Assembly (NCBI RefSeq): GCF_000299355.1
Contig: NC_018664.1
Location: 1,472,380 to 1,536,379 of the forward strand
Length of the DNA stretch: 64,000 nt
Direction: 5' to 3'
Source of the DNA: Gottschalkia acidurici 9a
GTDB lineage: Bacteria > Bacillota > Clostridia > Tissierellales > Gottschalkiaceae
A model generated the notes under the pieces. That model was not told the origin of the DNA. It ran no database searches and was given only the letters and a program-made list of their open reading frames with translations. Positions 12,596-46,715 of this stretch are shown piece by piece. How positions within the stretch are numbered: the first letter of the stretch is position 1; every line of letters starts with the position of its first letter. A program made the position numbers and the translations under genes.

Positions 12596-13574
12596 TTGTC
12601 TAAATTAACAGATTTTGAATTTCAAATTGAGGATTTTATGATTTACTGTGTGTCAAAAAAACTATCTACAAAAACAACTAAGTCATATGAGCAGACTTTA
12701 AAACTATTTGCTATGTATATGAAAGAAGAGCATAGTATTGATAACGCTGAGGATGTTAAAACAGCTCATATAAGACATTATATTAAATATCTTCAGGAGA
12801 TAGGAAAGTATACAGTTCAAACAAGAAATGAAAATATTAATTTTCCTCAAAATAGGACAGACAATGGAAAACAAATAAGTCCAAATACTATTAATAACTA
12901 TATACGAAATATAAAGGTCTTTTATAATTATCTAGTAGAAGAAAGAGTTATAAGAGAAAATCCACTTGATAGAGTTAAATTTTTGAAGAAGAGAGAAAGA
13001 ATAAAGGAATCTTTGTCTAGAACAGAGATAAATGTAATTTTGTCTAATTATAATTTAACAAGCTTTTATGGCTATAGAGACTACATTATAACTAAGCTAT
13101 TACTTACTACAGGTGCTAGAATAGGTGAAACTTTATCTTTATTAACAGAAGATATTGATTTTAAAAATAAAACAGTTCTTTTTAAGGATACAAAAAATAA
13201 AAAAGAGAAAATAGGCTATTTAAGCAATATGATGATGCAAGATCTTAGAAGATGGGTTTCTTATAAAGATAGATATATGACTACGGAATCGCTATTCCCT
13301 ACCAATCGTTGTACAAAGCTAAAATTGCATTCATATGAAAAGGCTTTAAAACGTGATGCATTACGTGGAGGCATAGAGAATGTGCTTCCTCATCGTCTAA
13401 GAGCTACTTTTGCCATAAGATTTCTTAAAAGCGGTGGAATTATGTGCATTAAGTCGTTTATTTGATCACTCTAATGTAGAGATCACAAGAGTATACTTAA
13501 ACTTAACTTAAGAAGAATTAAGGAAAGAATTTATGAAATATCATCCTTCAATAGATTTTGGAGGTGATAGGTAG
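12596..13574 (+). pseudogene. Tyrosine recombinase/integrase, frameshifted
   Basis: A TTG-started frame of 289 residues with a SAM-like N-terminal domain and catalytic-domain motifs (GARIGETLSLL, HRLRATFAIRF). The frame breaks near 13,435. The next frame then continues the family sequence as LSRLFDHSNVEITRVYLNL, including the catalytic tyrosine, then meets an in-frame TAA near 13,508 and ends in KYHPSIDFGGDR. Two lesions therefore separate the R/H residues from the tyrosine, so it should be inactive. It marks the left part of a decayed element beside spo0A. Confidence 0.85.
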
Positions 13575-33364: not shown

Positions 33365-33408
33365 TATAAAGGTTTGATTTAATAAAATCAGACCTTTATA
33401 TTTTTTGT
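33365..33408 (+). terminator. Terminator after dacB
   Basis: TATAAAGGTTTGATTT pairs with AAATCAGACCTTTATA (one G.U) and is followed by TTTTTTG. Confidence 0.9.
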
Positions 33409-33474
33409 AACAAAATATGAATTATAAAATAATCTATATATTATAATATTATATTTTGAGAGGAGGATAAATCT

Positions 33475-34443
33475 TTGAAACATAGACTAGAATGCATTGA
33501 TGCAGGAAGTGAATATTGTCCTTGTTACTTAGCTGAAACAAATGATTGTATAACGTGCTCACACTTACAAGGAAAGGAATTTTGTGAGTGTAATTGGAGG
33601 GGAATATGCATATATCAGGAATATGTTATGAATGGTTGTAAGAGGAAAAAGCAAAGGGAGTCTAATGTTGCTAAAGTAGAGGAGATAAAAAATATAAGTG
33701 ACAATTGCATTATATTAAAACTTAAAGTAAATAACACATTAGCAAGACAATTGAAGGAACCTGGTGCTTATGTTTTTTTAAGAGGAGAAGAGTTACCACA
33801 TTATTTCGATACTCCAATGTCTATAATGGATGTAGATGAAGTAAATGGATATATATATATAGCGTATCAAATATTGGGATCTAAAACAAAGAAACTTGAG
33901 AAGGATAGAGAAGAGTATCTAGTTAGAGGACCTTACTGGAATGGATTATATGGAATGAAAAACTTAAAGAAAGTATCAAACAAGGAATGTCTTGTAGTAG
34001 TAAAAGGAATTGCACAAGCACCAGCAATACTGGTAGTAAAGAAATTACTTAAGAACCAAAATAATGTGACGTTTATCGTGGATAAAGGAGCTATAGGAGA
34101 TGTGTTTATAAAGGATTTTATAAAAGGTTTAAATATGAAAACTATAGAAACAAATCTCCAGAGTAGTAGTGGTGAAATGTTAATTAAGAATATCCTAAAA
34201 AATAATGATATAGGATTAGTTTATAGTGGCGGATCTGATGTACTTCACAGTTCAATAATAAGAATGATTGATGAAACTAAAAAAGATCCATTTATAGTAG
34301 TTACTAATAATAATGAAATTTGTTGCGGGGAAGGAGTTTGCGGTGGATGTACTATAAGGCTAGCAGATGGAGTAAGAGCAAAATCTTGTAAAACGCAATT
34401 AGATGCAAGAAAAGTAATAGAGAGGAGAGTTCTTAATGACTAA
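33475..34443 (+). CDS. Dihydroorotate/sulfide-dehydrogenase-like electron-transfer flavoprotein
   Basis: 322 residues from a TTG after GAGAGGAGG. An N-terminal region with eight cysteines (about 5-62) is followed by a ferredoxin-reductase-type FAD domain, an NAD domain and a C-terminal 2Fe-2S loop CCGEGVCGGCTIR like that of PyrK. It overlaps the next oxidoreductase by 8 bp, so the two form an operon and probably one electron-transfer complex. Substrate unknown. The partner gene is interrupted by the 11-kb element. Confidence 0.82.
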   Translation: MKHRLECIDAGSEYCPCYLAETNDCITCSHLQGKEFCECNWRGICIYQEYVMNGCKRKKQRESNVAKVEEIKNISDNCIILKLKVNNTLARQLKEPGAYVFLRGEELPHYFDTPMSIMDVDEVNGYIYIAYQILGSKTKKLEKDREEYLVRGPYWNGLYGMKNLKKVSNKECLVVVKGIAQAPAILVVKKLLKNQNNVTFIVDKGAIGDVFIKDFIKGLNMKTIETNLQSSSGEMLIKNILKNNDIGLVYSGGSDVLHSSIIRMIDETKKDPFIVVTNNNEICCGEGVCGGCTIRLADGVRAKSCKTQLDARKVIERRVLND

Positions 34444-35230
34444 AGTTATAGTTATTGGAGGAGGATGGGCCGGATGTGCAGCTGCACTAAGTGCTAAAAA
34501 AGCTGGTGGTGATGTCACATTAATAGAAAAAACAGATCTTTTAGTAGGACTAGGTAATGTAGGCGGTATAATGAGAAATAATGGTAGATTTACTGCTACA
34601 GAAGAAAATATTTTACTGGGTGCTTCTGAACTATTCAATATAACAGATAAAGTAGCTAGACATAAAAATATAAAATTTCCGGGACATGATCATGCCACAC
34701 TATATGATGTTACTAAAGTAGAACCCGAGGTAAGAAGATTGTTAGAAGACAGAGGTATAAAAGTGCTTCTTGAAGCCAGAGCTATGGACGTTATAATGGA
34801 AGATAGTAAATTAAAAGGTATAGTATTAGCAGATGAAACTATAGTATATGGTGATGTATTTATAGAAACTACTGGATCCACGGGGCCAATAGGTAACTGT
34901 TTAAAATATGGAAATGGTTGCTCCATGTGCATATTAAGATGTCCTTCATATGGGCCAAGAGCAAGTATTAGTAGTTTAGCTGGAATTGAAGATATAGTTG
35001 GAAAAAGAGGAGATGAATGCTATGGTGCGTTTAGTGGATCTTGCAAGTTAAATAAAGATTCATTAAGTAAAGAGGTTATTGAGACCTTAAATAGGGAAGG
35101 CGTAGTGATACTAAAAATTCCAGATGAGGATATAAACTTAGAAAAACTTAATATTAAGGTTTGTCAGCAATATGCATTAAAGGAATTCGCACAGAATGTG
35201 ATCTTACTAGATACTGGTCATGCACTATGA
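34436..35230 (+). CDS. FAD-dependent oxidoreductase, 5' part (split by element)
   Basis: 264 codons as it stands. The N-terminal dinucleotide fold is VIVIGGGWAGCAAALSAKKA, followed by an FAD-family middle domain with ETTGSTGPIGNC and a CSMC segment. After LLDTGHA the frame runs into the element and stops at once (TGA 35,228-35,230). The C-terminal cap that closes FAD in this GidA/TrmFO-like family is missing here and is found 11 kb downstream at 46,214. Unless the element excises, this product is probably inactive. Confidence 0.9.
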   Translation: MTKVIVIGGGWAGCAAALSAKKAGGDVTLIEKTDLLVGLGNVGGIMRNNGRFTATEENILLGASELFNITDKVARHKNIKFPGHDHATLYDVTKVEPEVRRLLEDRGIKVLLEARAMDVIMEDSKLKGIVLADETIVYGDVFIETTGSTGPIGNCLKYGNGCSMCILRCPSYGPRASISSLAGIEDIVGKRGDECYGAFSGSCKLNKDSLSKEVIETLNREGVVILKIPDEDINLEKLNIKVCQQYALKEFAQNVILLDTGHAL

Positions 35231-35243
35231 ACAAAAGAACAAC
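35221..35243. other. attL of the intervening element
   Basis: The TGCAC core (35,221-35,225) is followed by the left 18-bp inverted-repeat arm (35,226-35,243). The recombinase stop codon (complement of CTA at 35,225-35,227) lies across core and arm. Confidence 0.85.
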
Positions 35244-36940
35244 TCTGAATTGAGTTGCTCCAGTTCATCAATTGTATACTCCCTTGTGGAAAAATCACCA
35301 TAATTGCTATCAGGATCCGTACTAGTACCTATAAATTTAATTCTTATTTTTTTCTTATCACCGTACCAATATATAGTGTCTATTAAAGCATTTATTAGTT
35401 GTTTTTGTTCTTCTCTAGAAAGTTTATCAATTAAAGCACATCTATTTAATATACTTGAAATAAAACTAATATCTAATTGTTCCATTTCTATATCTTTTGT
35501 TTCACTATCTATATTTTTTAATTTCTTGCTAAGGCCATTACATTCTTCTTTTAATGATTTTATTTTATCCATAAGTATCTCATCTATACTAGTATTTATA
35601 GAGAGCTTATTAACTAAATTATCTATCTGAAGTTTCTTTTCCTTCAAAGTATTTTCGATTGTGACTTTTTCTAATTCACTTTTACTATTAGTTAGGATTT
35701 CTTTATTTTTAGATTTCAATTTACATATGTATTCATTCTTTTCTTCGGCAAGTTTTTTAAGGCTAGCTATAACTAAATCATCTAACTCTGAAGCATTAGC
35801 ATTCTTATTATCACATAGCTTTTTTCGAGATTTTTTTTTAAGAGAGCATACATAGTAAAATACTTTTTCACCTGTAACCTTAGACACTCTTCCATGCTGA
35901 ACAGTCATATAACTGTCACAATAGCCACATCGTATTTTACCTGTTAAAAGTACATTGTGAGTTTTTCCGAGTCGTGGAAACTTATCTCTATTTATATCAA
36001 ACTGTTCTTGCACTTTTAACCATAGATCGGGTTCTAAAGCTCCCTTTATTTTGCTGACGGCCGCAAATCTTTTGCCAGTAGTGTTTACTAACTTAACACT
36101 TTTACCACCTCTACTAATATTTTCAGTTTTATTGTAGGTTAGTAGTGAGTGCATACCATCAGGCTCTCCATATATTTCCCAATTATTTTTCAATAGGTAG
36201 TCAATTACTTTATTACTAGATTTCACATATACAGGATTTTGAAGAATTATTTTTAATGTAGATTTCTCATATATTATACCATTTGTTGATTTTATATTGT
36301 TTTCATGCATATAGATTTCAAGTTTATGTAAACTACCTAACTCTAAGTATTTTTCATATAGGAACTTAACAAAATTCATTTCTTTTTCATCTATAATTAA
36401 AAGAGATTTTTCTTTTTTAGATCCTTTGTTATCTATATATACTACTTTTTCAGAATTAAATCCTAATGGTATTCTACCACCTGTCCATCTTCCATTCTTA
36501 GCAAGCTCAATCATATTGTCTTTTATGCGTTCAGCAATAGTCTCTCTTTCTAACTGTGCAAATACACTAGCGATATACATCATAGCTCTTCCCATAGGTG
36601 TAGAGGTATCGAACTGCTCCCTTATAGAAATAAAATCTATTTTAAGAGATTGCAATTTTTCAACTAGGACAGAAAAGTCAGCAACATTCCTACTTATTCT
36701 ATCTAATCTATAGCACACTAGAACATCAAACTCTTCATTTCTAGCGTCTTTCATTAATTTTTTAAACTGAGGTCTATCAGTATTCCCACCAGAGAATCCT
36801 TCATCTTCATAACATATAAATTTAAGATCTTCACCTAACTGTCTAGTAGCAAAGCTTTTACACATTTCAATTTGATTTTCAATACTATCTCCTTTTCCTG
36901 TAAACTTAGATTTACGGGAGTATATAGCAACTCTTTTCAA
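35225..36940 (-). CDS. Large serine site-specific recombinase (SpoIVCA-like)
   Basis: 571 residues from a TTG after AAAGGAGATG. The resolvase domain (about 1-150) has the nucleophile Ser8 in AIYSRKS, CYRLDRISRN and GRAMMYIASVFAQLERETIAERI read in parts. The recombinase domain (NGRWTGGRIPLGF), a zinc ribbon (CGYCDSY ... CSLKKKSRKKLC) and a C-terminal coiled coil follow, the layout of SpoIVCA, TnpX and phage integrases. It should integrate and excise the element at attL/attR. The length and motifs are intact, so the enzyme looks functional. Confidence 0.94.
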   Translation of the reverse strand: MKRVAIYSRKSKFTGKGDSIENQIEMCKSFATRQLGEDLKFICYEDEGFSGGNTDRPQFKKLMKDARNEEFDVLVCYRLDRISRNVADFSVLVEKLQSLKIDFISIREQFDTSTPMGRAMMYIASVFAQLERETIAERIKDNMIELAKNGRWTGGRIPLGFNSEKVVYIDNKGSKKEKSLLIIDEKEMNFVKFLYEKYLELGSLHKLEIYMHENNIKSTNGIIYEKSTLKIILQNPVYVKSSNKVIDYLLKNNWEIYGEPDGMHSLLTYNKTENISRGGKSVKLVNTTGKRFAAVSKIKGALEPDLWLKVQEQFDINRDKFPRLGKTHNVLLTGKIRCGYCDSYMTVQHGRVSKVTGEKVFYYVCSLKKKSRKKLCDNKNANASELDDLVIASLKKLAEEKNEYICKLKSKNKEILTNSKSELEKVTIENTLKEKKLQIDNLVNKLSINTSIDEILMDKIKSLKEECNGLSKKLKNIDSETKDIEMEQLDISFISSILNRCALIDKLSREEQKQLINALIDTIYWYGDKKKIRIKFIGTSTDPDSNYGDFSTREYTIDELEQLNSELFFCS

Positions 36941-37007
36941 ATTTTCATCTCCTTTGCTTTTTAGTGTTTAAATTAGTACATATTATAATATATATTTTTA
37001 ATTGCTG

Positions 37008-37037
37008 ACTTTATGAACTAATTACTTTATTATATTA
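37008..37037 (-). promoter_or_regulatory. Candidate sigma-E-type promoter of the recombinase
   Basis: Reading the - strand, TAATATA (37,037-37,031) matches 6 of 7 positions of the sigma-E -35 consensus KMATATT; 15 bp later CATAAAGT (37,015-37,008) matches CATACANT except for one base. It lies about 70 bp before the TTG. Mother-cell sigma-E drives spoIVCA in Bacillus. The region is very AT-rich, so chance matching is a real risk. Confidence 0.35.
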
Positions 37038-37107
37038 CTGTTTATAAATATATTAGAGTGTAAACTCTAATACCAACTGAAGTATGGGAAAATAACGTTT
37101 TTATATA

Positions 37108-37136
37108 TTGAAATATGTGCCTCGATATAGTATGGT
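37108..37136 (+). promoter_or_regulatory. Candidate sigma-A promoter before the Spo0E-like remnant
   Basis: TTGAAA (37,108-37,113) and TATGGT (37,131-37,136) are 17 bp apart and lie 35 bp before the start codon. Confidence 0.4.
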
Positions 37137-37170
37137 TAAGCGATAATGTTGATTAAATGAGGCGATAAAA

Positions 37171-37300
37171 ATGGATAAAGATAAATTAATTAGAAAAGAG
37201 CTAAGACTAATTATAGGAAGATTAGGATTGCTTAATAATAATTGTCTAAAATTAAGCACTTGATAATTTGATACTAGATTATGTATATCTTTATCTCTAA
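37171..37300 (+). pseudogene. Spo0E-like aspartyl-phosphate phosphatase, frameshifted
   Basis: After TGAGGCG and ATG the frame reads IRKELRLIIGRLGLLNNN then CLKLS and stops at 37,263. In a shifted frame the sequence continues ALDNLILDYVYLYL to TAA at 37,300. Together they match the Spo0E pattern (two short helices with an S-x-x-x-D signature, here LS..ALD). A 5-bp loss between AAGC repeats would explain the break. Spo0E proteins dephosphorylate Spo0A~P. Family call is by pattern only. Confidence 0.55.
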
Positions 37301-37709
37301 TTTGATTAACTTCACTATATAATTTCTATCTATCAATTATAATATATTCAGATTTGATCCATATAAATGATAAGTTAAAGTCTGAGCAGATCTGATGCTA
37401 TTAGAAATTATATGACTTTTTTATAAATTATTGTTGGTAACTATAAAAGTTATCATTAATAGTTTATTCTCTAGGTGTTGAACTATAGTTATTAATATTA
37501 GCATCTATGTCTTTACATTTTGCGATATCAGAAATAGAAGTTAGTACTAATATAAATATTAAAACAGTTGATACAAATTTTCTTTTTATCTACAATCATT
37601 ATAAAAACAATAAGCTCAAATATTTTCTAAAAAGCATGTATCTATCGCAAAATTTGACATTTATTTAAATGTGTAAAATTAGCAATCAATCAAATGATTT
37701 TACAATTCC
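37301..37709. other. Element intergenic region
   Basis: About 400 bp with no supported + strand gene. On the - strand between 37,599 and 37,464 a broken frame resembles a small exported peptide (VSTVLIFILVLTSISDIA then a short polar tail), but the only ATG is out of frame with it. Confidence 0.4.
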
Positions 37710-37751
37710 TGTCGGAAGATGTCGACAAAAGCCCTACTTCTCTAATATAAC
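37710..37751 (+). promoter_or_regulatory. Promoter with two tandem 0A-box-like sites before the agr module
   Basis: TGTCGGA (37,710-37,716) and TGTCGAC (37,720-37,726) each match 6 of 7 bases of the Spo0A box TGNCGAA and start exactly 10 bp apart, one helical turn. The second overlaps a -35-like TCGACA (37,722-37,727), followed 18 bp later by TATAAC (37,746-37,751). This is the layout of promoters that Spo0A activates. The agr sensor gene starts 38 bp downstream. Confidence 0.55.
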
Positions 37752-37788
37752 AATAAGTGTTAAGATTAATATAAGAGGTGATGTATTT

Positions 37789-38643
37789 GTGGATATTATG
37801 ACTCTTAAGGAAATATTAATAGTAGGTGTACCAGAAGTATTTATTGTAATTTTAATAGGATTAGTACTTGGATTTAGTAATGATTTTTTTAAACAGATAA
37901 GACTATGGGGTTTAAAACTTTTCATATCAGTAATGTTTATTTTAATAGGTATATATTTTATTAGGAGTAGAGCAACAAGTATTCAAAGTATAAGTATATT
38001 TTGTCTTATTACATATATAGCAAGTTATAAGTTTATATTCGAGATGAACACTAGAAAAAGTATAATAATTGGAAGTATAGTTATGTTTCTAATACTTTCA
38101 TCAGAAATAGTTACATTTCCAGTTTTAAAGTATATAGAAAATGGAGTCTATTTTAAGAATAGAATTAATGTAACTATTATAACTAGAGTTATTCAGATTA
38201 TTATTTTAGTATTGTTTTATAAAGCTAATATGCACATAAGTAATATAAATATGATCTCGTGTAAATGGAGAGATCTTAAGATTAAAGAAAAAATAACTAT
38301 TGTATTTATAATATCTTTATTAGTATTATGCGTAATATTTAATGCTAGCTATTCAGACTTATATGTAAAGTTAAATATTAGTAATTTAAAACTTGAAGAT
38401 AGCTATATAAGATTAAACATGTTTATGTATTTTATGGAAAATATACTTTTTATATTCATAGTATTGTATCTTCTTAACAGAACAAAAAACTATTATATTT
38501 TTGAGGAATTTTTATTACAGGGAGATGAAGCAATCCTTCGTGACTTATTAGAATTAGCAGATGAGGAGAGAATTAGGGAGTATAAAAAAATCTGTGATCA
38601 ATATCTTGAAGAATTAGATATACCTAATAGGGTGACTGAATGA
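37789..38643 (+). CDS. AgrC-like membrane sensor without kinase domain
   Basis: 284 residues from a GTG after GAGGTG. Six or seven membrane segments fill residues 9-240, followed by a 45-residue acidic cytoplasmic tail (LLELADEERIREYKK). No H-box or ATP-binding domain is present. It overlaps agrD by 4 bp (ATGA). By layout it resembles the pheromone-sensing half of AgrC; whether it senses the peptide, exports it or gives immunity is unknown. Confidence 0.6.
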   Translation: MDIMTLKEILIVGVPEVFIVILIGLVLGFSNDFFKQIRLWGLKLFISVMFILIGIYFIRSRATSIQSISIFCLITYIASYKFIFEMNTRKSIIIGSIVMFLILSSEIVTFPVLKYIENGVYFKNRINVTIITRVIQIIILVLFYKANMHISNINMISCKWRDLKIKEKITIVFIISLLVLCVIFNASYSDLYVKLNISNLKLEDSYIRLNMFMYFMENILFIFIVLYLLNRTKNYYIFEEFLLQGDEAILRDLLELADEERIREYKKICDQYLEELDIPNRVTE

Positions 38644-38780
38644 ATAAAAAGTTTGCTCTTAAACTAATAGAAACTACTATGAGGTTAATAGTTTCTTTAT
38701 TTTCAATGTTAGCCGTACAAGCTCAAACATGCTCTGCAGCATTTTGGAAAACTAAAATGTCAAAAGCACTAGAAAAATAA
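38640..38780 (+). CDS. agrD: AgrD-like cyclic autoinducer peptide precursor
   Basis: 46 residues, too short for most gene finders. An amphipathic N-terminal helix (residues 3-26) leads to AQTCSAAFW and then the charged tail KTKMSKALEK. The cysteine at position 31, five residues from an aromatic pair, fits a thiolactone ring of the CSAAF type, and the tail is the part AgrB recognises. It overlaps the sensor gene and is followed by a hairpin. agrB lies two genes later. Confidence 0.8.
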   Translation: MNKKFALKLIETTMRLIVSLFSMLAVQAQTCSAAFWKTKMSKALEK

Positions 38781-38812
38781 GAACAGGAGCTTCCTCCTGT
38801 TCTTATTTAAAG
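38779..38812 (+). terminator. Hairpin between agrD and the Spo0A-C-like gene
   Basis: AAGAACAGGAG pairs with CTCCTGTTCTT around a 4-nt loop and is followed by ATTTAA. It could favour high agrD output over the downstream genes. Confidence 0.75.
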
Positions 38813-38825
38813 AGGAGGGAGTTAG

Positions 38826-39113
38826 TTGAAAATAACTGAATTACTTAATGAGCTTGGAGTAGATAACTTCAGGGATAGAGCATTTCTGTATAAAATAATA
38901 TCTATATTTAAAGGAAATAATCAGTGTGATAATTTCGTTCAAACTATTATAAATGAATTTGAAAGAGACTATTCTACTATAAGAAAGAGAATGAAGAGAA
39001 TTATAGAAAGTAATGAAAATAATATATCAAATGTACTAGATATACAAAAGGATAAATTAACAAGTAAGGCTTTTGTACAAAAGCTAATTAAAAAAACAGG
39101 AGCAAAGAAATGA
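38826..39113 (+). CDS. Spo0A C-terminal-domain-like DNA-binding protein
   Basis: 95 residues from a TTG after AGAGGAGGG. It aligns by eye along the whole DNA-binding domain of the chromosomal Spo0A in this window: ITELLNELGV against [25 protein letters not shown] against [15 protein letters not shown], and KLTSKAFVQKLIKK against [14 protein letters not shown]. There is no receiver domain, so it cannot be phosphorylated like Spo0A. It overlaps agrB by 4 bp. It may act at 0A boxes, including those before this operon. Confidence 0.7.
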   Translation: MKITELLNELGVDNFRDRAFLYKIISIFKGNNQCDNFVQTIINEFERDYSTIRKRMKRIIESNENNISNVLDIQKDKLTSKAFVQKLIKKTGAKK

Positions 39114-39700
39114 ATGGAATTATTAAACTATTTGCATATAAAATATATAAACATACCGATAAATATAACAAAGATAAACATGATAAAGACGAATGGAGAG
39201 AAGTGTTAGAATATATAGTTTATAGAATCATGACATTTACTCTACTTATAACAATGCTAGTTATATTATCAAATCTATTTACAATAGATAATGATATATA
39301 TGTATTTACTATTAGCTTTTTAATTTTAAAAAGAAAGTTTGGTGGAATGCATCTAGAAAGTGAAGTGGGATGTTTTATATTAAGTCTAATATTTCCACTC
39401 ATCGTATATTTCTTATTTAAAAATACTCATACCCAAAGCGAAATTCTTATAATTATGAGCATTACTTCTGCTTTCATGCTGGCTAAAATAGGAACGGTAG
39501 ATAATGTAGTGAGAAAGCTAAAGAAAGAACATAAATTAAAGTTACAAAAACAGGGGATTATAGTCCTAATAATAATGTTATCAATAAATTTATATACAAA
39601 TAATCAGTTTATATCTTTAGCGCTAATTTTTACAGTAATAAACTGCTTAATTGGTAAAATTCAATATATTAAAAAAATTGCAGGACATGAGAAAAAATAA
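39110..39700 (+). CDS. agrB: AgrB-like peptide-processing membrane protease
   Basis: 196 residues with four to six membrane segments and the AgrB catalytic block KRKFGGMHLESEVGCFILSL, which holds the conserved His and Cys. AgrB removes the AgrD tail and forms the thiolactone. It is translationally coupled to the Spo0A-C-like gene. An intact protease, precursor and sensor-like protein make the module plausibly functional. Confidence 0.88.
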   Translation: MNGIIKLFAYKIYKHTDKYNKDKHDKDEWREVLEYIVYRIMTFTLLITMLVILSNLFTIDNDIYVFTISFLILKRKFGGMHLESEVGCFILSLIFPLIVYFLFKNTHTQSEILIIMSITSAFMLAKIGTVDNVVRKLKKEHKLKLQKQGIIVLIIMLSINLYTNNQFISLALIFTVINCLIGKIQYIKKIAGHEKK

Positions 39701-39774
39701 TATAATAAAGCTCACAAACAAATATTCCTTTTATGCTGTAGACTTATTAGTATAAGACAAGGAGGAATATAGTA

Positions 39775-39834
39775 ATGATAAAATATATACTTTGGTATGG
39801 TAATTATATAGATAAATATGGCTGCGATATATAA
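39775..39834 (+). CDS. 19-residue peptide with strong ribosome site
   Basis: AAGGAGGAATATAGTA precedes an ATG opening a 19-codon frame rich in Tyr and Ile (MIKYILWYGNYIDKYGCDI). It lies directly before a large palindrome. It may be a tiny peptide or the cut-off start of a lost gene. Confidence 0.35.
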   Translation: MIKYILWYGNYIDKYGCDI

Positions 39835-39850
39835 GCTTAGATTATAAAGC

Positions 39851-39910
39851 TAGTTAAACAAAAGAGAGGTAAAATCTATTAATAGATTTTACCTCTCTTT
39901 TGTTTAACTA
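39851..39910. terminator. Perfect 60-bp palindrome
   Basis: Bases 39,851-39,880 and 39,881-39,910 are exact reverse complements with no spacer; the arms contain AAACAAAAGAGAGGTAAAAT and its complement. On RNA it would form a long hairpin ending the agr transcript from either side, though no separate U-tract follows. Confidence 0.75.
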
Positions 39911-40131
39911 AGGATATGTTGAATTTTGTATTTTTTAAAAGAATTCTCAAAGCGTTTATATATTTAGTAATTTTACATATTACACTGTAATAATTTAAAT
40001 ACAGATAAATTTTATCATTTCTTAAATGAAGTCATTTAGATTTATTTTAATAGATTCTAAACTAGATATTTCTATGTTCCTAATCTTTTAGTTATCTATA
40101 TATTAGTGTTAGAATATTGGAAAGTAACACT
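39911..40131. other. AT-rich spacer inside the element
   Basis: No gene or RNA recognised. Confidence 0.4.
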
Positions 40132-40248
40132 ATGGAAAAAGTTAAGATAAAACTATCCTATAAATATAAGCTCATAAAAAGAAGTAAGTGCAGGCTAAGC
40201 TATAAGGTAGTGAAGAAGTATATTTACTTCAAATTAGTTAATTATTAA
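40132..40248 (+). CDS. Possible 38-residue very basic peptide
   Basis: ATG after TTGGAAAG opens a frame with 11 Lys and 2 Arg among 38 residues (MEKVKIKLSYKYKLIKRSKC then RLSYKVVKKYIYFKLVNY). It has no recognised family; it could be a phage-type small protein or chance. Confidence 0.25.
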   Translation: MEKVKIKLSYKYKLIKRSKCRLSYKVVKKYIYFKLVNY

Positions 40249-40323
40249 CTTAGCTTTAAACTAGCTAATAGACTGTCATAGGACATTCAGTGGTACACAT
40301 AGCATTTAGTAAGGAGGTTGAAA

Positions 40324-40485
40324 ATGTATAAAGTTGAACTGATTTTGCCTAAAGATATTCAACCATTAAAAGAAAGAATGACTGATGTACTCACAGATAT
40401 ATGGATAAAGAAGTTAGGTACAAAAGAGAAAGTAGATCATCTTATAAAAGAATTAGAGAAAGAAGATATAGAAGAATTTCTTTAA
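40324..40485 (+). CDS. Small element protein, 53 residues
   Basis: A near-perfect AAGGAGGTTGAAA ribosome site precedes the ATG. The product is soluble and helical, with a charged C-terminus (VDHLIKELEKEDIEEFL). No family recognised. It may be the first gene of the phage-type cluster that continues at 41.2 kb. Confidence 0.55.
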   Translation: MYKVELILPKDIQPLKERMTDVLTDIWIKKLGTKEKVDHLIKELEKEDIEEFL

Positions 40486-41262
40486 AAAAGACGTAAGATA
40501 AACACAACATTAGACTTTAAAAATTATTTGTATATAGTTGCTTTTTACAGTATTAAAGGATTAATCTTAAATTTTAAGAAAAGGACAAAATATAACGAAA
40601 GGTAGTGCATTAATAAACCTTCGCTATAAAAATAGAATTAAATAACGTGTGCTGCTATAGAATATACAATTAGATCTTATGATTTACACTAAAATACGGT
40701 TGAAAATAATAATAACATAATAAGAAGATCTTAAATGTTTAATATAATTATTTAACTATTAGAATCGAGGAATAATACTATGAGACTCTACAGTTTATAA
40801 GATAGAGCTATAGATATAATAGTTATCAGTATATATAATGACAAACACAAGAAACAATAGAACTAAAAGTGAAGATTATAGCTTTATTGGCCAATAAATT
40901 AAAAAGAAAAAGGTTCTTCAGATCTGACACTCTGAAGAACTTAAACTTGATAGCTTAAAAATATGTTTAATATAAGCGTTATACTACATAGAAATGAGCT
41001 TTATGAAGAGAAATAATTCAATAATTTAAATCTCTTAGAACTATTATAAAAGTTATCAATATCTCCTTTAAGAACAAAGTGTAAAGAAAAAATACAAAAG
41101 AATATACATGCTTTAAAGAATCATTATTTAAATCTTTAAAAAATAACGATAGCATAAAAATTTTAAAAAAATAGTGATTGGATAAAGGATACATAAAAGA
41201 AGAAAAAGAGATTTTAAATAGATCACAAAAAACTAGAGAACAAGTTATAGCTTTAGGAATGA
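40486..41262. other. Decayed DNA inside the element
   Basis: Nothing intact. Short frames such as KEEKEILNRSQKTREQVIAL (41,178-41,312, TTG start) look like a phage-gene remnant. Confidence 0.4.
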
Positions 41263-41451
41263 ATGACGAAAATGATTATGAAAATTATAAGAGATGTTAT
41301 AAATACTCATAAACCTTTAGGTCTGTTTTGGGCAAAAGATACCAAGGCTAATTTATATATAGCAGTAAATAATAATATAGGGAAAGCTTATAAACAAAAG
41401 TTCAAATCACTAGAAGAATGCATAAATTGGTTAATGAAGGAGGAAGTATAG
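41263..41451 (+). CDS. Small phage-type protein, 62 residues
   Basis: The frame ends KSLEECINWLMKEEV and has TLYIAV-like strands (KANLYIAVNNNIGKAYKQKF), a pattern of short phage proteins of unknown role. The ATG at 41,263 has a weak AGGA close by; 41,272 is an alternative start. Three more small genes follow closely in the same direction. Confidence 0.5.
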   Translation: MTKMIMKIIRDVINTHKPLGLFWAKDTKANLYIAVNNNIGKAYKQKFKSLEECINWLMKEEV

Positions 41452-41453
41452 TG

Positions 41454-41696
41454 ATGTATACAGAGTCAGTAGAATCACTAAAAAAAGTAGAGTTAGCCAT
41501 AAATACTTTAAATGATTTAGAAGGTGATGAAGCAATTAGTGGTGATGAGATTTTAAATATAATAGAGCCTTCAACTGAACGCTTACATGAACTTAGAATA
41601 AGATTAAAATTAGATATTAATAAGTGTCAAGAGGACAGGTATTCACTAAAAGAAGATAAAGCAGATATCTTCAGAAAGATAGCAAAAGGATATTAA
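41454..41696 (+). CDS. Small phage-type helical protein
   Basis: 80 residues from the ATG at 41,454, preceded by GAAGGAGGAAG; a GTG at 41,451 is also in frame. The product is mostly helical and acidic (VELAINTLNDLEGDEAISGD). It lies upstream of a Rad52-like gene, where phages keep recombination accessory genes. No family recognised. Confidence 0.55.
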   Translation: MYTESVESLKKVELAINTLNDLEGDEAISGDEILNIIEPSTERLHELRIRLKLDINKCQEDRYSLKEDKADIFRKIAKGY

Positions 41697-41698
41697 AC

Positions 41699-41902
41699 AT
41701 GAAAAAGCTTATAAAGGAATGGAAATACAGACTTAAAAATATAGATGAAAACTTACAGATACACATAAAAGCAATTGAGAATAAAGAATATACAAAAGAC
41801 ATGAGAGACTATGCAAGAAGTAGAGTGATTAGTTTAACAGAATATAAGAATCTTATAGAAAGTACAATAGAAGCACTTGAGAAAGTGAAAGAGGAGGTAT
41901 AG
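41699..41902 (+). CDS. Small phage-type coiled-coil protein
   Basis: 67 residues, helical throughout (WKYRLKNIDENLQIHIKAIE), starting 2 bp after the previous stop and ending just before the Rad52-like gene. The previous gene's last codons (AAAGGATATTAA) provide the ribosome site. No family recognised. Confidence 0.5.
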   Translation: MKKLIKEWKYRLKNIDENLQIHIKAIENKEYTKDMRDYARSRVISLTEYKNLIESTIEALEKVKEEV

Positions 41903-41905
41903 AAA

Positions 41906-42586
41906 GTGAATATCAGGGCATTAAGGTCTGATGAAATAGAATGTAGAGTACAAACAGTAAAGCAAAATGGATGTTCTTTGCTTCTGTTTAAAGATGCAAG
42001 ATGTGATATGAAAATACTAGATGAAACCTTTGGAATAATGGGATGGCAAAGAAAGCATGAGCTTATAAATAATAACCTGTTTTGTACTATATCAGTTTGG
42101 GATAAAGATAAACAAATGTGGATTAGTAAACAAGATGTTGGAGTTGAAAGCTATGCAGAAAAAGAAAAAGGGCAAGCATCAGATAGCTTTAAAAGAGCAT
42201 GTTTTAACTTAGGTATAGGTAGAGAACTTTATACAGCTCCTTTTATATGGATTAGTTTAAATAGTAATGAGATAATTGAGAATAAAGGAAAGTATAATGT
42301 CAAAACAAAGTTTAGAGTTAAAGAAATAAGTTATAACGAAAACAAAGAGATAGATAGACTAGTTATAGTTGATAACCAAGGAACAGTAAGATATGAGACA
42401 GGAAAGCATATAAAAGCAGACAATATTAATCGCAATACGAACAGTAAAAGCAACACTGAAAAAGATAAAGAAACAGACTATAAGTGCTTAGAATGTGGAG
42501 TAGATATTATACAAGCAGTAAATGCATATAGCAATAATAAATTTGGACGAGCATTGTGTAGAGATTGTCAAAATAAGCAAAGGTAG
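41906..42586 (+). CDS. Rad52/DdrA-like single-strand annealing protein (phage type)
   Basis: 226 residues from a GTG after GAGGAGGT. The core MGWQRKHELINNNLFCTISV, QDVGVESYAEKEKGQASDSF and KRACFNLGIGRELY is the pattern of the phage Rad52/DdrA annealing family. A C-terminal zinc ribbon (CLECGVDI ... ALCRDCQ) follows. Such proteins pair complementary strands during phage replication and recombination. It points to a phage origin for the element. Confidence 0.8.
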   Translation: MNIRALRSDEIECRVQTVKQNGCSLLLFKDARCDMKILDETFGIMGWQRKHELINNNLFCTISVWDKDKQMWISKQDVGVESYAEKEKGQASDSFKRACFNLGIGRELYTAPFIWISLNSNEIIENKGKYNVKTKFRVKEISYNENKEIDRLVIVDNQGTVRYETGKHIKADNINRNTNSKSNTEKDKETDYKCLECGVDIIQAVNAYSNNKFGRALCRDCQNKQR

Positions 42587-42594
42587 ATGAGATT

Positions 42595-42702
42595 ATGAGG
42601 AGATACAGCTATGAAGAATATCTACGAATATGTTATTGGAATGACGAAGAACCAATGACTGAGAAAGAGTATGCAGAGTTTTTAGAAACTAATTATGACT
42701 AA
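42595..42702 (+). CDS. 35-residue small phage-type protein
   Basis: A short acidic frame (MRRYSYEEYLRICYWNDEEP) starting 8 bp after the Rad52-like gene with GATGAGAT upstream and ending before a terminator. Likely a real small phage gene, but the evidence is context only. Confidence 0.4.
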   Translation: MRRYSYEEYLRICYWNDEEPMTEKEYAEFLETNYD

Positions 42703-42710
42703 GTAAATAT

Positions 42711-42742
42711 AGGGGTCTCTACAATAAGAGATCCCTAATAAA
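42711..42742 (+). terminator. Terminator of the phage-gene cluster
   Basis: AGGGGTCTCT pairs with AGAGATCCCT (one G.U) and is followed by AATAAAAAG; it ends the 41.2-42.7 kb cluster. Confidence 0.65.
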
Positions 42743-43319
42743 AAGATATATAAATATCATGCTTGTTATAATTGTTCTATTACTAAGAATAATGAAAGTC
42801 TGTGCTGAAAATCATGTTATGGGAAACCCAAAATACAAAAAGAAAATAATATTGATTTTGAAAATATTTCAATCAATACAAAGAACTTTTAAATTATATG
42901 ATATTACAAATAAACATTATATCTTATAACGAATCTGGCTTGAATAAAGAATACTCCCTAGCTTCAACGCTTTAAGTTTTACATTCACTTATAGTGATAG
43001 AAAACAAAGATTTTCTAAAAAAATATAATAATGAAAATACCTCATTGATAAAGAGAAAACTTAAGCAGTAAAGACATAAACAGTCGCTAAAAACAAGATT
43101 TTTCAAGAAATGGAGGTAAAAGAGAAAGAGTTTAGAAAAAATCATAAAAGACTTAAGTCTATATTGGGATTTCATGAAGATTTAACTAAAGCTAGAGTAA
43201 TTTTAAGAACAAGTTCATATGTGAAAATTTGAAATAGTAAATATTTAGGATGGTATCAGAGAAATAAAGGAATATTATCTTTTACATAGAAATTTATATG
43301 TAAAGGGGAGTGATAGTAG
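42743..43319. other. Decayed element DNA
   Basis: No intact gene. A 40-codon frame at 43,110-43,232 (MEVKEKEFRKNHKRLKSILG) lacks clear support. Confidence 0.4.
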
Positions 43320-43549
43320 ATGGATAAAGATAAAATTATAAATCATATAGGTGAAAATTTTAAAAAGGATGCCCTATGTGTAATGGCATGGAATGGGATA
43401 TATGCAATAACTTATCAAGCAGCTATCCTTTAAGCAGTAAAAACGGTAGTTATGAGTGGGAACAAAAAGGAAAGGTAAATCCTGTAGTAGAAGTTATATG
43501 CTTACATTGTGGATTTGTAGCGGGAATATCTACTTTAGTAATGAGATAG
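43320..43549 (+). pseudogene. Zinc-finger phage protein, frameshifted
   Basis: ATG after AGGGGAGTG opens MDKDKIINHIGENFKKDA. A second frame then carries CPMCNGMEWDICNN and, near its end, CLHCGFVAGISTLVMR up to TAG at 43,549. Joined at about 43,370 they give a 75-residue protein with a CxxC...CxxC zinc ribbon, so a single frameshift has probably killed it. Confidence 0.6.
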
Positions 43550-44337
43550 AGACTAAGAGCCTACTTGTTGTTCTTTTAATCTTAAAAAATAATTAAAATA
43601 TTTGAGTAAATATAGAATCATAAATAATTGAACAAATTATAAAGTTAAATTAAATATCTATGTTAATTGCTGAAATGGCGGAAATATAATAAAAAATAAA
43701 TAATTTTAAACATAATAACAAAGAAAAAGATAAGTGGCTGATAGCTTAGAGACAACAAAATCACTTTTAATAGACCTTTAAAGGGCTAGTATATGACAAT
43801 AGAGAGGATCAATAACTTTACATTAAGGCTAGAAAACGGAAATATAAAAAATTATTTTAAAGATGTCCAAAAGCACCATAGACAAAATATTGACATGCTA
43901 GCAAGTTATATTCGCAACCGAAAGAGAAGATAGAAATTAAAGGAGAAATATATCTGAAAAGGTTTTGGAGAGGTAATCCGGATTATAAATCAAGAGATCT
44001 TGTATGTGAAATATTACAAAATGATAGGAAATCTACCGAGAAGTTAAAAAGGTTAACTTAATTTAAAAAAGGGTCTAAGCAGCAAAGGCTCTTTTTTATG
44101 TAATAAGGCAATTTTAATATGTATACGAGCATAACGTAAGTGTTATACAATGATAAAAATGATTATTCTTTTTACTCCACAAAAATAATATTTGTTAAAA
44201 TGATATTTAGAGAGACTTAATTTCTTTATATGGCTTATATGCTATATATAATATCTTTATCTTAATATCCTAAGATCTACTTATTGTTGAATTTCAATAT
44301 TTACAAATACTACATACGACTTCCAGTAAATGTTTGA
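43550..44337. other. Decayed element DNA
   Basis: Fragments only: a 46-codon basic frame at 43,793-43,933 (MTIERINNFTLRLENGNIKN) and a frame ending LVCEILQNDRKSTEKLKRLT at 44,061. Neither has a convincing ribosome site. Confidence 0.4.
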
Positions 44338-44520
44338 TATAATGAATTAAGATAAATATTATAATTTTACTATCTATGAAGTTTAATTATATAAAAGTAG
44401 ATGAATTCTTATGAGAATAAAACGAATTAATTACTCGGTGCAGTTTATATAAATGATAGTATATTGTACCGAGAAAAGAAAAATATTACTATCAGCGTAA
44501 CTGCATCGTCCTTTTTAGTA
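44315..44520 (+). promoter_or_regulatory. Promoter and attenuator-like leader of the methyltransferase gene
   Basis: TATAAT (44,338-44,343) has a weak -35, TACGAC, 17 bp upstream. The leader can fold two ways. CTCGGT (44,434) with ACCGAG (44,468) forms a short hairpin. Alternatively 44,436-44,445 pairs with 44,499-44,508 over ten positions, enclosing GATAGT/ACTATC, and is followed by CCTTTTT, a terminator. The two share bases, so only one can form. A 13-codon frame (MRIKRINYSVQFI, 44,411-44,452) crosses the switching arm. Confidence 0.5.
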
Positions 44521-44548
44521 TCCAGATAATATTAGGGAGGAAAGGGTT

Positions 44549-45307
44549 ATGAATCGTGATAGACTTAGAAGAATATGGAAGAAGGAAGAGAATAAGGTTT
44601 TTAAAGGATGGGATTTTTCTTATTTAGACAGCAGATGGTATGATGAAAAGCTACCTTGGAACTATAAAAAAATATTAAAAGAGTATTTAAAATCAGAATA
44701 TAAAATACTTGATATGGGAACAGGTGGAGGAGAATTCTTATTATCTTTAAATCATCCATATAATAAAACTTCAGTTACAGAGATGTGGGAACTTAATATA
44801 AAAGTATGTAAGGAAAAACTAGCTCCGCTAGGTATTGGTGTGTACCAAATATACCAAGATAAAATCTTACCTTTTAAAGATAATTCTTTTGACATGATTA
44901 TAAATAGACATGAATCGTATGATGTAAAAGAAATAAAGAGAATATTAAGGCCTAGAGGTATATTTATTACTCAACAAGTTGGTGGGAGAAATAATGAAAT
45001 TCTTTCGAATCGGTTAATAAAAGATTTTAACCCGCAATTTAAGAACATTAGCTTAGATAATGCTATATACGAATTAAAAGAAAACTTCTTTAACATCATA
45101 TATAAGAATGAGTATTTTCCATACTTACATTTTTATGATGTTGGTTCTATTGTATACTTTGCAAAAATCATAGAGTGGGAGTTTCCAAACTTTTCGGTAG
45201 ATAGTTGCTTTAATGAACTATATGACTTATATAAAGAACTAAAACAAAAGTCATATGTAGAAAGTTTTGAACACAGATTTATTATAGTATGTAAAAATAT
45301 AAAATAG
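44549..45307 (+). CDS. Class I SAM-dependent methyltransferase
   Basis: 252 residues with motif I LDMGTGGGEFLLSL, LPFKDNSFDMIINRHESYD and EIKRILRPRGIFITQQVGG, the usual SAM fold of small-molecule or macromolecule methyltransferases. It has its own promoter, a regulated-looking leader, a GGGAGGAAAGG ribosome site and a terminator, so it is a free-standing cargo gene. The leader layout recalls antibiotic-inducible resistance genes, but the substrate is not evident. Confidence 0.85.
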   Translation: MNRDRLRRIWKKEENKVFKGWDFSYLDSRWYDEKLPWNYKKILKEYLKSEYKILDMGTGGGEFLLSLNHPYNKTSVTEMWELNIKVCKEKLAPLGIGVYQIYQDKILPFKDNSFDMIINRHESYDVKEIKRILRPRGIFITQQVGGRNNEILSNRLIKDFNPQFKNISLDNAIYELKENFFNIIYKNEYFPYLHFYDVGSIVYFAKIIEWEFPNFSVDSCFNELYDLYKELKQKSYVESFEHRFIIVCKNIK

Positions 45308-45319
45308 CTACTTATATAA

Positions 45320-45360
45320 TAAGGGGTTTGATATCTAACATTCAAACCCTTTAAATATTT
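45320..45360 (+). terminator. Terminator after the methyltransferase
   Basis: AAGGGGTTTGA pairs with TCAAACCCTTT; AAATATTTT follows. Confidence 0.8.
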
Positions 45361-46194
45361 TATAATTTTATGTTAGATTTAAAAGTATATTAGTGTATTG
45401 ACAGAAGAAGTAGATAATACTATTACTGTTATAAATATTTCAATATCTTAATAAATAAATAAAAAACTAAAATATGAAAGTAAACAATAAATAAAAACAT
45501 ATATAAATATGGGAGCTTATATAGAGTAAATGGATCAATAAGTATTGCCTGTAGAAAAGGATTAAAAAGATTTAAAGATAGAATTGAGGCATTTACATAT
45601 AATGGATCGAAAGGTAATAATAATGCAATGTAAAGGTGAGGAAAAAAGAGAGTCTGTAATTCCAAAATGCACTATTTTAATTGGACAGTATTGAGAAAAA
45701 ATATGAGCATATTATTTAGGATATTACATGATCAAATAGTATTAGAACTTTAGATAGTTAAATGTTAATGTATCAGACGAAATCTTGAAAATATTTTAAA
45801 TATGTCATATCAGTCTGTATTAAAATCTTTAAGTGAAAGGGACAAAGAGAAACTATGAAACAAATAGCAATAGTTTAATAAATAGATATCATTTTAATTA
45901 GTAAATGTAATGACTAAACTAATAACTCTAAGTTATTCTAGGGAAAATAATATGCTGTTAAATTATGTTGTGAGAATAAAATTTTAAAATATTGTGGATA
46001 GTATTTTTTGTTTGTAACTTATTAATAAAATTTGTTATAGGAATAAGTTCTACTTATGTTCCATTTAATAATTCTTTAATAGTTGTATTACTCATTTTTC
46101 TTAACTTGCAAAGTATAGTAGATATATTATACCTAGATAGTGTAGAATATAATGTGGAGATGATATTTTCTATATTGATAAATGTGTTTTTAAT
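45361..46194. other. Decayed right end of the element
   Basis: Broken frames such as GLKRFKDRIEAFTYNGSKGN and NLENILNMSYQSVLKSLSER (HTH-like) with stops around them. A hydrophobic TTG frame at 45,992 runs into attR but has no ribosome site. Confidence 0.45.
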
Positions 46195-46218
46195 GTTGTT
46201 CTTTTGTTCATACTGCAC
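46195..46218. other. attR of the intervening element
   Basis: The right 18-bp inverted-repeat arm (46,195-46,212), one C, then the TGCAC core (46,214-46,218). Host sequence ATGCTAAG resumes at 46,219. Confidence 0.85.
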
Positions 46219-46715
46219 ATGCTAAGTTAATGTCTTCATTTTATCCACTTGAAAGATTGAGAAAAATAAGAGGACTAGAAAGTGCTAGATATGAAGATCC
46301 TTACTCAGGTGGGAAAGCTAACTCAGTTAGATATCTTTCCATAGCTCCAAGAGATAATAAAATGAAAGTTGCTGGATTAGATAACTTACTGTGTGGTGGA
46401 GAAAAAGCAGGTTTATTTGTAGGTCATACTGAAGCAATAACTACAGGAAGTTTAGCAGGGCACAATAGTGTAAGATTAAGTTTAGGAATGCCTCTATTAG
46501 AGCTTCCAAGGAATCTTGCAGTAGGAGATATTATTGCTTATGCTAATGAGAGCATAGGTACGAAAGATGGACTTAAGAAAAGATTTACATTTGCGGGTTC
46601 AGAATTTTTTGAAAGAATGAAGGTTACAGGATTATATACTACAAACATAGAGGAAATTAGGAAGAAAATAGATGGATTAAATTTACTTGGAATATATGAA
46701 GAAAAATTAGTATAA
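46214..46715 (+). CDS. FAD-dependent oxidoreductase, 3' part (split by element)
   Basis: The frame carries the missing C-terminal FAD cap: LRKIRGLESARYEDPYSGGK, GLDNLLCGGEKAGLFVGHTE and ITTGSLAGHNSVRL. Joined to 34,436-35,220 it gives one 428-residue protein. An internal ATG at 46,230 (MSSFYPLERL) has no ribosome site, so this part is probably not translated alone. Downstream it is followed by rluB. Confidence 0.9.

What the first reader, a model, noticed from the sequence alone, without database searches (positions are those of the whole stretch)
34436..46715. An 11-kb element splits an oxidoreductase gene, and its precise excision restores one reading frame
Seen directly: TGCAC at 35,221 and 46,214, 18-bp perfect inverted repeats just inside, a large serine recombinase at the left end, and 1,287 bases (429 codons including stop) of open frame if 35,220 joins 46,214. 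The first half has the N-terminal FAD fold, the second the C-terminal FAD cap. Known family precedent: sigK skin elements and other sporulation-gene intervening elements excised by SpoIVCA-type recombinases. Inference: this flavin oxidoreductase may be rebuilt only when the element leaves, perhaps during sporulation in the mother cell. I know of no description of this gene as a target.
Basis: partly seen in the sequence, partly recalled or inferred. Interest (0 to 1): 0.93.

Follow-up and report, generated by a model that had tools for sequence, protein, structure and literature searches.

The report
Excisable element splitting sporulation oxidoreductase gene
An 11-kb mobile element cuts a spore-former's flavoenzyme gene in two and looks built to jump out in the mother cell and mend it; other species have the same gene cut at four different places in all, so this gene is a new recurrent target of developmental gene splitting.

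Summary
A 10,999-bp element with a large serine recombinase (LSR) splits a flavin oxidoreductase gene. The core is CATGC (35219-35223 / 46218-46222); excision gives 1,281 nt, 426 aa.

The reading is well supported by sequence, but nothing was assayed. (1) The same gene is split by LSR elements in nine other genomes, at four codon positions; the joins computed restore the frame. C. ljungdahlii (3,090-bp element) against intact C. ragsdalei is a clean full/empty pair. (2) The operon has a conserved sigma-K-type promoter (36 of 59 loci; shuffles 0.02) that in this genome also precedes coat-like genes. (3) The element carries a 53-aa ORF, the likely excision factor; its promoter motif (ATAG[GT]ACA-N12-CATAnnnT) occurs twice in the whole genome, both times before such an ORF. 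(4) The genome also carries a split sigK and a split subtilase. (5) Split halves evolve under purifying selection.

Best reading: a sporulation-gene intervening element excised in the mother cell. No paper found names this target. New member of a known kind, new hotspot.

The parts
33407..33436 (+). sigma-K-type promoter of the operon, GTAACA-N16-ATAATCTA
   Evidence: conserved in 36 of 59 orthologous upstream regions against a shuffle mean of 0.02; best-scoring such site in the 64 kb; 38 nt before the start codon
33475..34443 (+). PRK05802-type FAD/NAD-binding [2Fe-2S] electron-transfer partner, first gene of the operon, intact
   Evidence: NF004470 401 bits against a cut-off of 313; adjacent to the FAD gene in most relatives
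34436..35223 (+). 5' half of the FAD oxidoreductase gene (codons 1-261 plus the core)
   Evidence: GIDA/FAD_oxidored N-terminal part; colinear with intact orthologues
35219..35223 (+). left copy of the crossover core CATGC (attL)
   Evidence: restores the family's LLDTGHAKLM and 426 aa
35226..35243 (+). attP arm, perfect inverted repeat with 46195-46212
35225..36940 (-). large serine recombinase, 571 aa, ending flush with attL
   Evidence: Resolvase, Recombinase and Zn_ribbon_recom above Pfam cut-offs; 60% identical to the LSR at the same site in G275
40278..40305 (+). sigma-E/SpoIIID-like promoter ATAGGACA-N12-CATAGCAT before the candidate RDF
   Evidence: exact N12 form found twice in 3.1 Mb, both before such ORFs; reversed-pattern control 0
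40324..40485 (+). candidate recombination directionality factor (RDF), 53 aa
   Evidence: 43% identical over 51 aa to the small ORF of the sister site-2 element in G275, the only protein besides the LSR clearly shared by the two elements on the contigs held; weak profile link to the small ORFs of other elements
37789..38643 (+). cargo: membrane protein, no family match
38826..39113 (+). cargo: 95-aa protein, unassigned
39110..39700 (+). cargo: AgrB-like peptidase
   Evidence: PF04647 E=2.5e-20
41906..42586 (+). cargo: Erf/Rad52-type annealing protein
   Evidence: phrog_14970 E=1.9e-93 and Erf-like phrog_1097; 56% identical to the protein in the C. ljungdahlii element
44549..45307 (+). cargo: SAM-dependent methyltransferase
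   Evidence: PF08241
46195..46212 (+). attP arm, perfect inverted repeat with 35226-35243
46218..46222 (+). right copy of the crossover core CATGC (attR)
46218..46715 (+). 3' half of the FAD oxidoreductase gene (codons 262-426 and stop)
   Evidence: GIDA C-terminal part; colinear with orthologues; dN/dS about 0.11 against G003

Best explanation
This is a sporulation-gene intervening element (skin-like). An LSR-borne mobile element integrated at a conserved GHAK-coding site of a mother-cell flavoenzyme gene. In vegetative cells the second gene of the PRK05802-FAD operon is cut at codon 262. During sporulation a sigma-E/SpoIIID-type promoter turns on a 53-aa directionality factor in the mother cell. 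With it the LSR recombines attL and attR across CATGC, releases a 10,999-bp circle and rebuilds a gene for 426 residues. A sigma-K-type promoter then transcribes the mended operon late in the terminal mother cell, so the germ line keeps the element. Shown by sequence: boundaries, empty sites, frame restoration, recurrence, promoter motifs, small-ORF family. Inferred: that the 53-aa ORF is the RDF, the timing, the cell type, and that the rebuilt enzyme works.
For: Exact empty sites: G003 has the intact gene, and joined C. ljungdahlii aligns with no gap at the junction, 94.7% over 4.1 kb, to intact C. ragsdalei. Recurrent splitting at codons about 85, 262, 296 and 332, with exact core joins and LSRs tending to group by site. 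Sigma-K-type promoter in 36/59 loci, and the same motif before coat-like genes in this genome; the sigma-K -35 is AC in C. difficile (PMC3789822). Candidate RDF shared with the sister element and its rare promoter motif; in C. difficile skin the RDF gene is controlled by sigma-E and SpoIIID (PMC5025042). Split sigK with an LSR in the same genome. All 24 sampled orthologues at 60% identity or more lie in spoIVA-positive genomes, against 220/293 overall. Split gene dN/dS 0.067 in C. ljungdahlii against C. ragsdalei; about 0.10 in the window against G003.
Against: No reads, PCR or transcript data; excision was not seen. The insertion could be recent, so purifying selection could predate it. The window gene is 4-5 points further from the nearest outgroups than G003's (77.0/82.2, 73.7/77.9, 74.6/78.4), which may be mild relaxation; scpB shows a similar gap for two of them. 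The profile link of the 53-aa ORF to the wider small-ORF family is weak by itself (E=0.4-0.9). GTAACA also resembles the C. difficile SpoIIID box. No sigma-E or sigma-K-type promoter was found before the LSR itself. The spoIVA co-occurrence is not corrected for ancestry.
Confidence: 0.8

Rival explanations
1. An ordinary LSR mobile element or prophage remnant that uses this conserved gene as attB. It leaves only for its own spread, and the host gene is simply knocked out in carriers.
For: LSR elements do use conserved genes as attB; the Erf-like cargo is phage-type; elements of 34-80 kb sit at other sites of the gene; mild rate excess in the window.
Against: The candidate RDF has mother-cell-type promoters in several elements. 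The target operon itself has a sigma-K-type promoter. Both split halves stay conserved. The same genome has two more such splits, one in sigK.
Confidence: 0.14
2. A permanently split, decaying gene: the recombinase no longer acts and the halves are pseudogenes.
For: Low coding density in parts of the element (for example about 42.6-44.5 kb); some rate excess.
Against: LSR, att sites and candidate RDF are intact; no stop or frameshift in either half; dN/dS about 0.10 for the pair; the C. ljungdahlii 3' part, whose ORF has no start before the codon aligned to residue 117, has dN/dS 0.05.
Confidence: 0.05
3. Assembly artefact or chance repeats.
For: None found.
Against: The same architecture occurs in complete and draft genomes of other genera; the window lies in a 3.1-Mb contig.
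Confidence: 0.01

Closest known systems
skin element of C. difficile (in sigK; LSR CD1231, RDF CD1234)
   Same: LSR, small element-encoded RDF, precise rebuild of a mother-cell gene; RDF gene under sigma-E and SpoIIID (PMC5025042)
   Different: The target here is a flavin oxidoreductase operon, not a sigma factor; excision is unproven here; element content differs
yin element in yabG of C. botulinum (PMC10747680)
   Same: Clostridial intervening element in a sigma-K-regulated gene, with a putative sigma-K promoter before its putative RDF
   Different: Different target; reported from one strain, whereas the gene here is hit at four sites in several genera
gin element in gerE of B. cereus (PMC5595907)
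   Same: Intervening element without phage genes in which a serine recombinase and an additional factor restore the gene
   Different: 28.6 kb with three recombinases; Bacillus; different target
SP-beta prophage in spsM of B. subtilis (PMC4191935)
   Same: Element excised in sporulation to rebuild a spore gene
   Different: Active prophage; different target
sigK-splitting element of this same genome (G000:C2:1449988-1461546)
   Same: 11.6 kb, LSR 42% identical to the window LSR, 68-aa candidate RDF with a near-match to the same promoter motif
   Different: Target sigK, core GTATTGATAAT, other cargo

Membership tests
sporulation-gene intervening (skin-like) element | splits a coding sequence; short direct repeats; joining restores the intact frame | tested here: met
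   empty sites
sporulation-gene intervening (skin-like) element | encodes a SpoIVCA-type large serine recombinase beside an att site | tested here: met
   three Pfam domains over cut-off; gene ends at attL. Not compared directly with SpoIVCA or CD1231
sporulation-gene intervening (skin-like) element | encodes a small RDF expressed in the mother cell | tested here: inconclusive
   53-aa candidate with a conserved partner in G275 and a rare sigma-E/SpoIIID-like promoter; activity and expression not testable here
sporulation-gene intervening (skin-like) element | target gene belongs to the sporulation programme | tested here: inconclusive
   conserved sigma-K-type promoter, spoIVA co-occurrence, neighbours ytfJ and dacB; no expression data
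sporulation-gene intervening (skin-like) element | excision observed during sporulation and circle formed | not testable with these tools
   no reads or cells
sporulation-gene intervening (skin-like) element | rebuilt gene is functional | not testable with these tools
   proxy only: low dN/dS
intact prophage | phage structural and packaging genes | tested here: inconclusive
   of 10 ORFs scanned only the Erf-like protein and the integrase match phage families clearly; one weak terminase-small hit (E=0.004); not every ORF was scanned

The most novel reading that the evidence does not exclude
The PRK05802-FAD operon is a late mother-cell redox module of clostridial spore-formers, and its FAD gene is a second sigK-like hub: several groups of LSR elements, from 3 to 80 kb, have converged on four conserved motifs of it and put their excision factor under mother-cell control, so that about one species in eight carrying the gene depends on DNA excision to make the enzyme.
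Probability: 0.6. Interest if true: 0.8.

Novelty: new member of a known kind. Interest (0 to 1): 0.74.

Why it matters
Only a handful of sporulation genes (sigK, spsM, spoVFB, gerE, yabG) are named as rebuilt by excision in the papers read here. This adds a metabolic enzyme gene that is hit again and again across Clostridia, at four sites and by differing LSR groups, often enough (3 of 23 sampled orthologues apart from the window) to study convergence. It predicts a function in late spore formation for an uncharacterised flavoenzyme. The candidate RDF family and its promoter motif give a sequence signature for finding developmentally excised elements. The 3.09-kb element of C. ljungdahlii, set against C. 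ragsdalei, is a small non-pathogen test case.

Tried and rejected
G011 as a further split: its contigs overlap by 30 nt at site 2, so this may be only an assembly break; not counted. G087: cut by a contig end; not counted. A sigma-K or sigma-E-type promoter before the LSR genes: none convincing. Sigma-F enrichment upstream of the operon: its hits sit on ribosome-binding sites. An earlier promoter-like site at 37437-37466 before a 53-codon ORF without a ribosome-binding site: dropped in favour of 40278-40305. Third genome hit of the sigma-E/SpoIIID-like pattern (spacing 13): inside a ribosomal-protein-like coding stretch, chance. One paper search had an illegal term and one region request was over length. 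Paper searches for this target found no prior description, in an open-licence library only. No structure prediction was made: the joined protein is not readable in one piece from the window, and sequence families already placed both halves.

Full report
OBSERVATION. The sequence is as described: a split FAD oxidoreductase gene, 18-bp perfect inverted arms, and a 571-aa LSR flush with the left end. One detail is wrong. The 26 intact relatives printed have GHAKLM, or a one-residue variant of the same length, at this spot, so the crossover core is CATGC, not TGCAC. The element is 10,999 bp, and excision restores 1,281 nt (426 aa), not 1,287. The reconstructed attP has 18-bp arms around CTGCACATGCAC with central CA; serine integrases need a non-palindromic centre for direction (general knowledge), which the TGCAC reading would not give.

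EMPTY SITES. The window genome is G000 (3.1 Mb). Of the three other genomes held for its family, one, G003, has the intact gene, 79% identical over its full length; the other two lack the gene. The collection scan returned 73 loci, most of them intact. The sharpest pair is C. ljungdahlii ERI-2 (split, 3,090-bp element, core CATGCT) and C. ragsdalei (intact): the computed join aligns over 4,063 nt at 94.7% with no gap at the junction.

RECURRENCE. Partial tblastn matches led to further split copies. Site 1, codon about 85 (PGH[KE]HA): C. ljungdahlii 3 kb, Tepidibacter formicigenes about 51 kb, Clostridiaceae 14S0207 about 34 kb. Site 2, codon 262 (GHAK): the window, and G275, whose LSR is 60% identical over its full length. 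Site 3, codon about 332 (GHTEA): T. thalassicus about 35 kb, another Tepidibacter (G009), Hathewaya massiliensis about 80 kb, and the record labelled Lutibacter sp. B2 (G004). Site 4, codon about 296 (DPYAGG): G197, with a more distant LSR. In each an LSR gene lies at the split. Computed joins restore full-length frames for C. ljungdahlii, T. formicigenes, 14S0207, T. thalassicus, G009 and Hathewaya. For G004 and G197 the core was read by eye from the junction sequences, and for G275 only the left junction is assembled; in G009, G004, G197 and G275 the two halves lie on different contigs. LSRs tend to group by target site (all labels together 2 changes, the minimum; as low in 1 of 200 shuffles), although most forks are weakly resolved. 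In an even sample of 293 Clostridia, 24 genomes carry an orthologue at 60% identity or more and 4 of these are split, 3 of 23 without the window genome.

IS THE GENE A SPORULATION GENE? It is the second gene of a two-gene operon with a PRK05802-type FAD/NAD-binding iron-sulphur protein, commonly beside ytfJ, dacB, scpAB and rluB. All 24 orthologues lie in spoIVA-positive genomes, against 220 of 293 overall; the five gene-positive, spoIVA-negative genomes have only matches of 58% identity or less (not corrected for ancestry). Upstream of the operon, GTAAC[AC]-N16/17-ATAnnnTA occurs in 36 of 59 loci (several are overlapping copies of one genome) against a shuffle mean of 0.02. In C. difficile, sigma-K promoters have AC at -35 and a -10 like that of sigma-E (PMC3789822). 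In G000 the motif with GTAACA occurs 30 times (reversed control 16); many sites stand shortly before coat-like Cys-, Tyr- or His-rich proteins and cell-wall amidases, while about nine lie inside large ORFs. 'Coat-like' is judged from composition; Pfam names only the amidases and a few domains. The copy before this operon is the best-scoring in the 64 kb (it was one of the 12 training sites). GTAACA also resembles the C. difficile SpoIIID box; both readings point to the mother cell.

HOW EXCISION IS TIMED. Small ORFs of 54-61 aa in six elements form one family. The window ORF 40324-40485 (53 aa) is only weakly linked by profile but is 43% identical to the small ORF of the sister G275 element; LSR and this ORF are what the two elements clearly share on the contigs held. 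ATAG[GT]ACA-N12-CATAnnnT stands 17-33 nt before these ORFs in the window, the subtilase element, T. thalassicus and T. formicigenes: four distinct exact hits in 2.2 Mb of loci, all before such ORFs, reversed control 0. In the whole genome the exact N12 form occurs twice, both before candidate RDFs (a third hit with spacing 13 is inside a coding stretch). The pattern was derived from these sequences, so its specificity, not its presence, is the evidence. In G275 and 14S0207 the small ORF instead follows a sigma-K-type motif. In C. difficile the skin RDF CD1234 is under sigma-E and SpoIIID while the LSR is not cell-type specific (PMC5025042), the same logic.

CONTEXT. The same genome has sigK split by an 11.56-kb LSR element and a subtilase split by a 4.4-kb LSR element; both joins restore full frames.

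SELECTION. C. ljungdahlii split gene against C. ragsdalei: 42 synonymous, 11 non-synonymous, dN/dS 0.067; partner gene 0.197. Window against G003: dN 0.136, below the flanking genes tested (0.16-0.22); both halves dN/dS about 0.1, with synonymous sites near saturation. Against this, the window copy is somewhat further from close outgroups than G003's, and the date of insertion is unknown.

VERDICT. Shown: boundaries, frame restoration, empty sites, recurrence, conserved promoter motifs, small-ORF family. Inferred: the RDF role, mother-cell timing, enzyme function. It works like, and most likely is, a sporulation-gene intervening element on a target that no paper found here describes.

Noticed in passing
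G000:C2:1449988-1461546 (L115): sigK is split by an 11,558-bp LSR element (core GTATTGATAAT); the join restores a SigK-like frame of about 240 aa.
   Followed up: yes
G000:C2:2990569-2994985 (L117): A subtilase gene is split by a 4,416-bp element (core TCTGCTATACA) carrying an LSR, a MATE transporter, a polysaccharide-deacetylase-like protein and a 54-aa candidate RDF: another possible new intervening-element target.
   Followed up: partly
L132, L133, L134 (record Lutibacter sp. B2): At least five copies of the last ~99 codons of the FAD gene, those read each following an attR-like sequence, are strung along one contig with no LSR found in the stretches read: a tandem array of elements carrying alternative 3' ends, or repeated integration; unexplained.
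   Followed up: partly
window 39110-39910: AgrB-like gene followed by a 19-codon ORF with a good ribosome-binding site (possible peptide signal) and a 60-bp perfect palindrome (30-bp arms, no loop) inside the element.
   Followed up: no
L120:5122-8211: The C. ljungdahlii element is minimal: LSR, 57-aa candidate RDF and an Erf-like protein 56% identical to the window's.
   Followed up: partly
L115:8583-9074: A DUF1259-domain protein inside the sigK element has its own sigma-K-type promoter motif, so cargo on the excised circle may be expressed late in the mother cell.
   Followed up: no
L120, L126, L127, L171 and window 35219-35223: Sites 1 and 2 share the core CATGC although they lie in different parts of the gene (both encode His-Ala).
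   Followed up: no
window 12596-13465: A tyrosine-recombinase-like ORF that looks shortened at its C-terminus lies just downstream of spo0A.
   Followed up: no
L121 and L122 (G011): Two contigs of a MAG end with a 30-nt overlap exactly at site 2 of the FAD gene; could be an assembly break or a mixed population with and without an element.
   Followed up: partly
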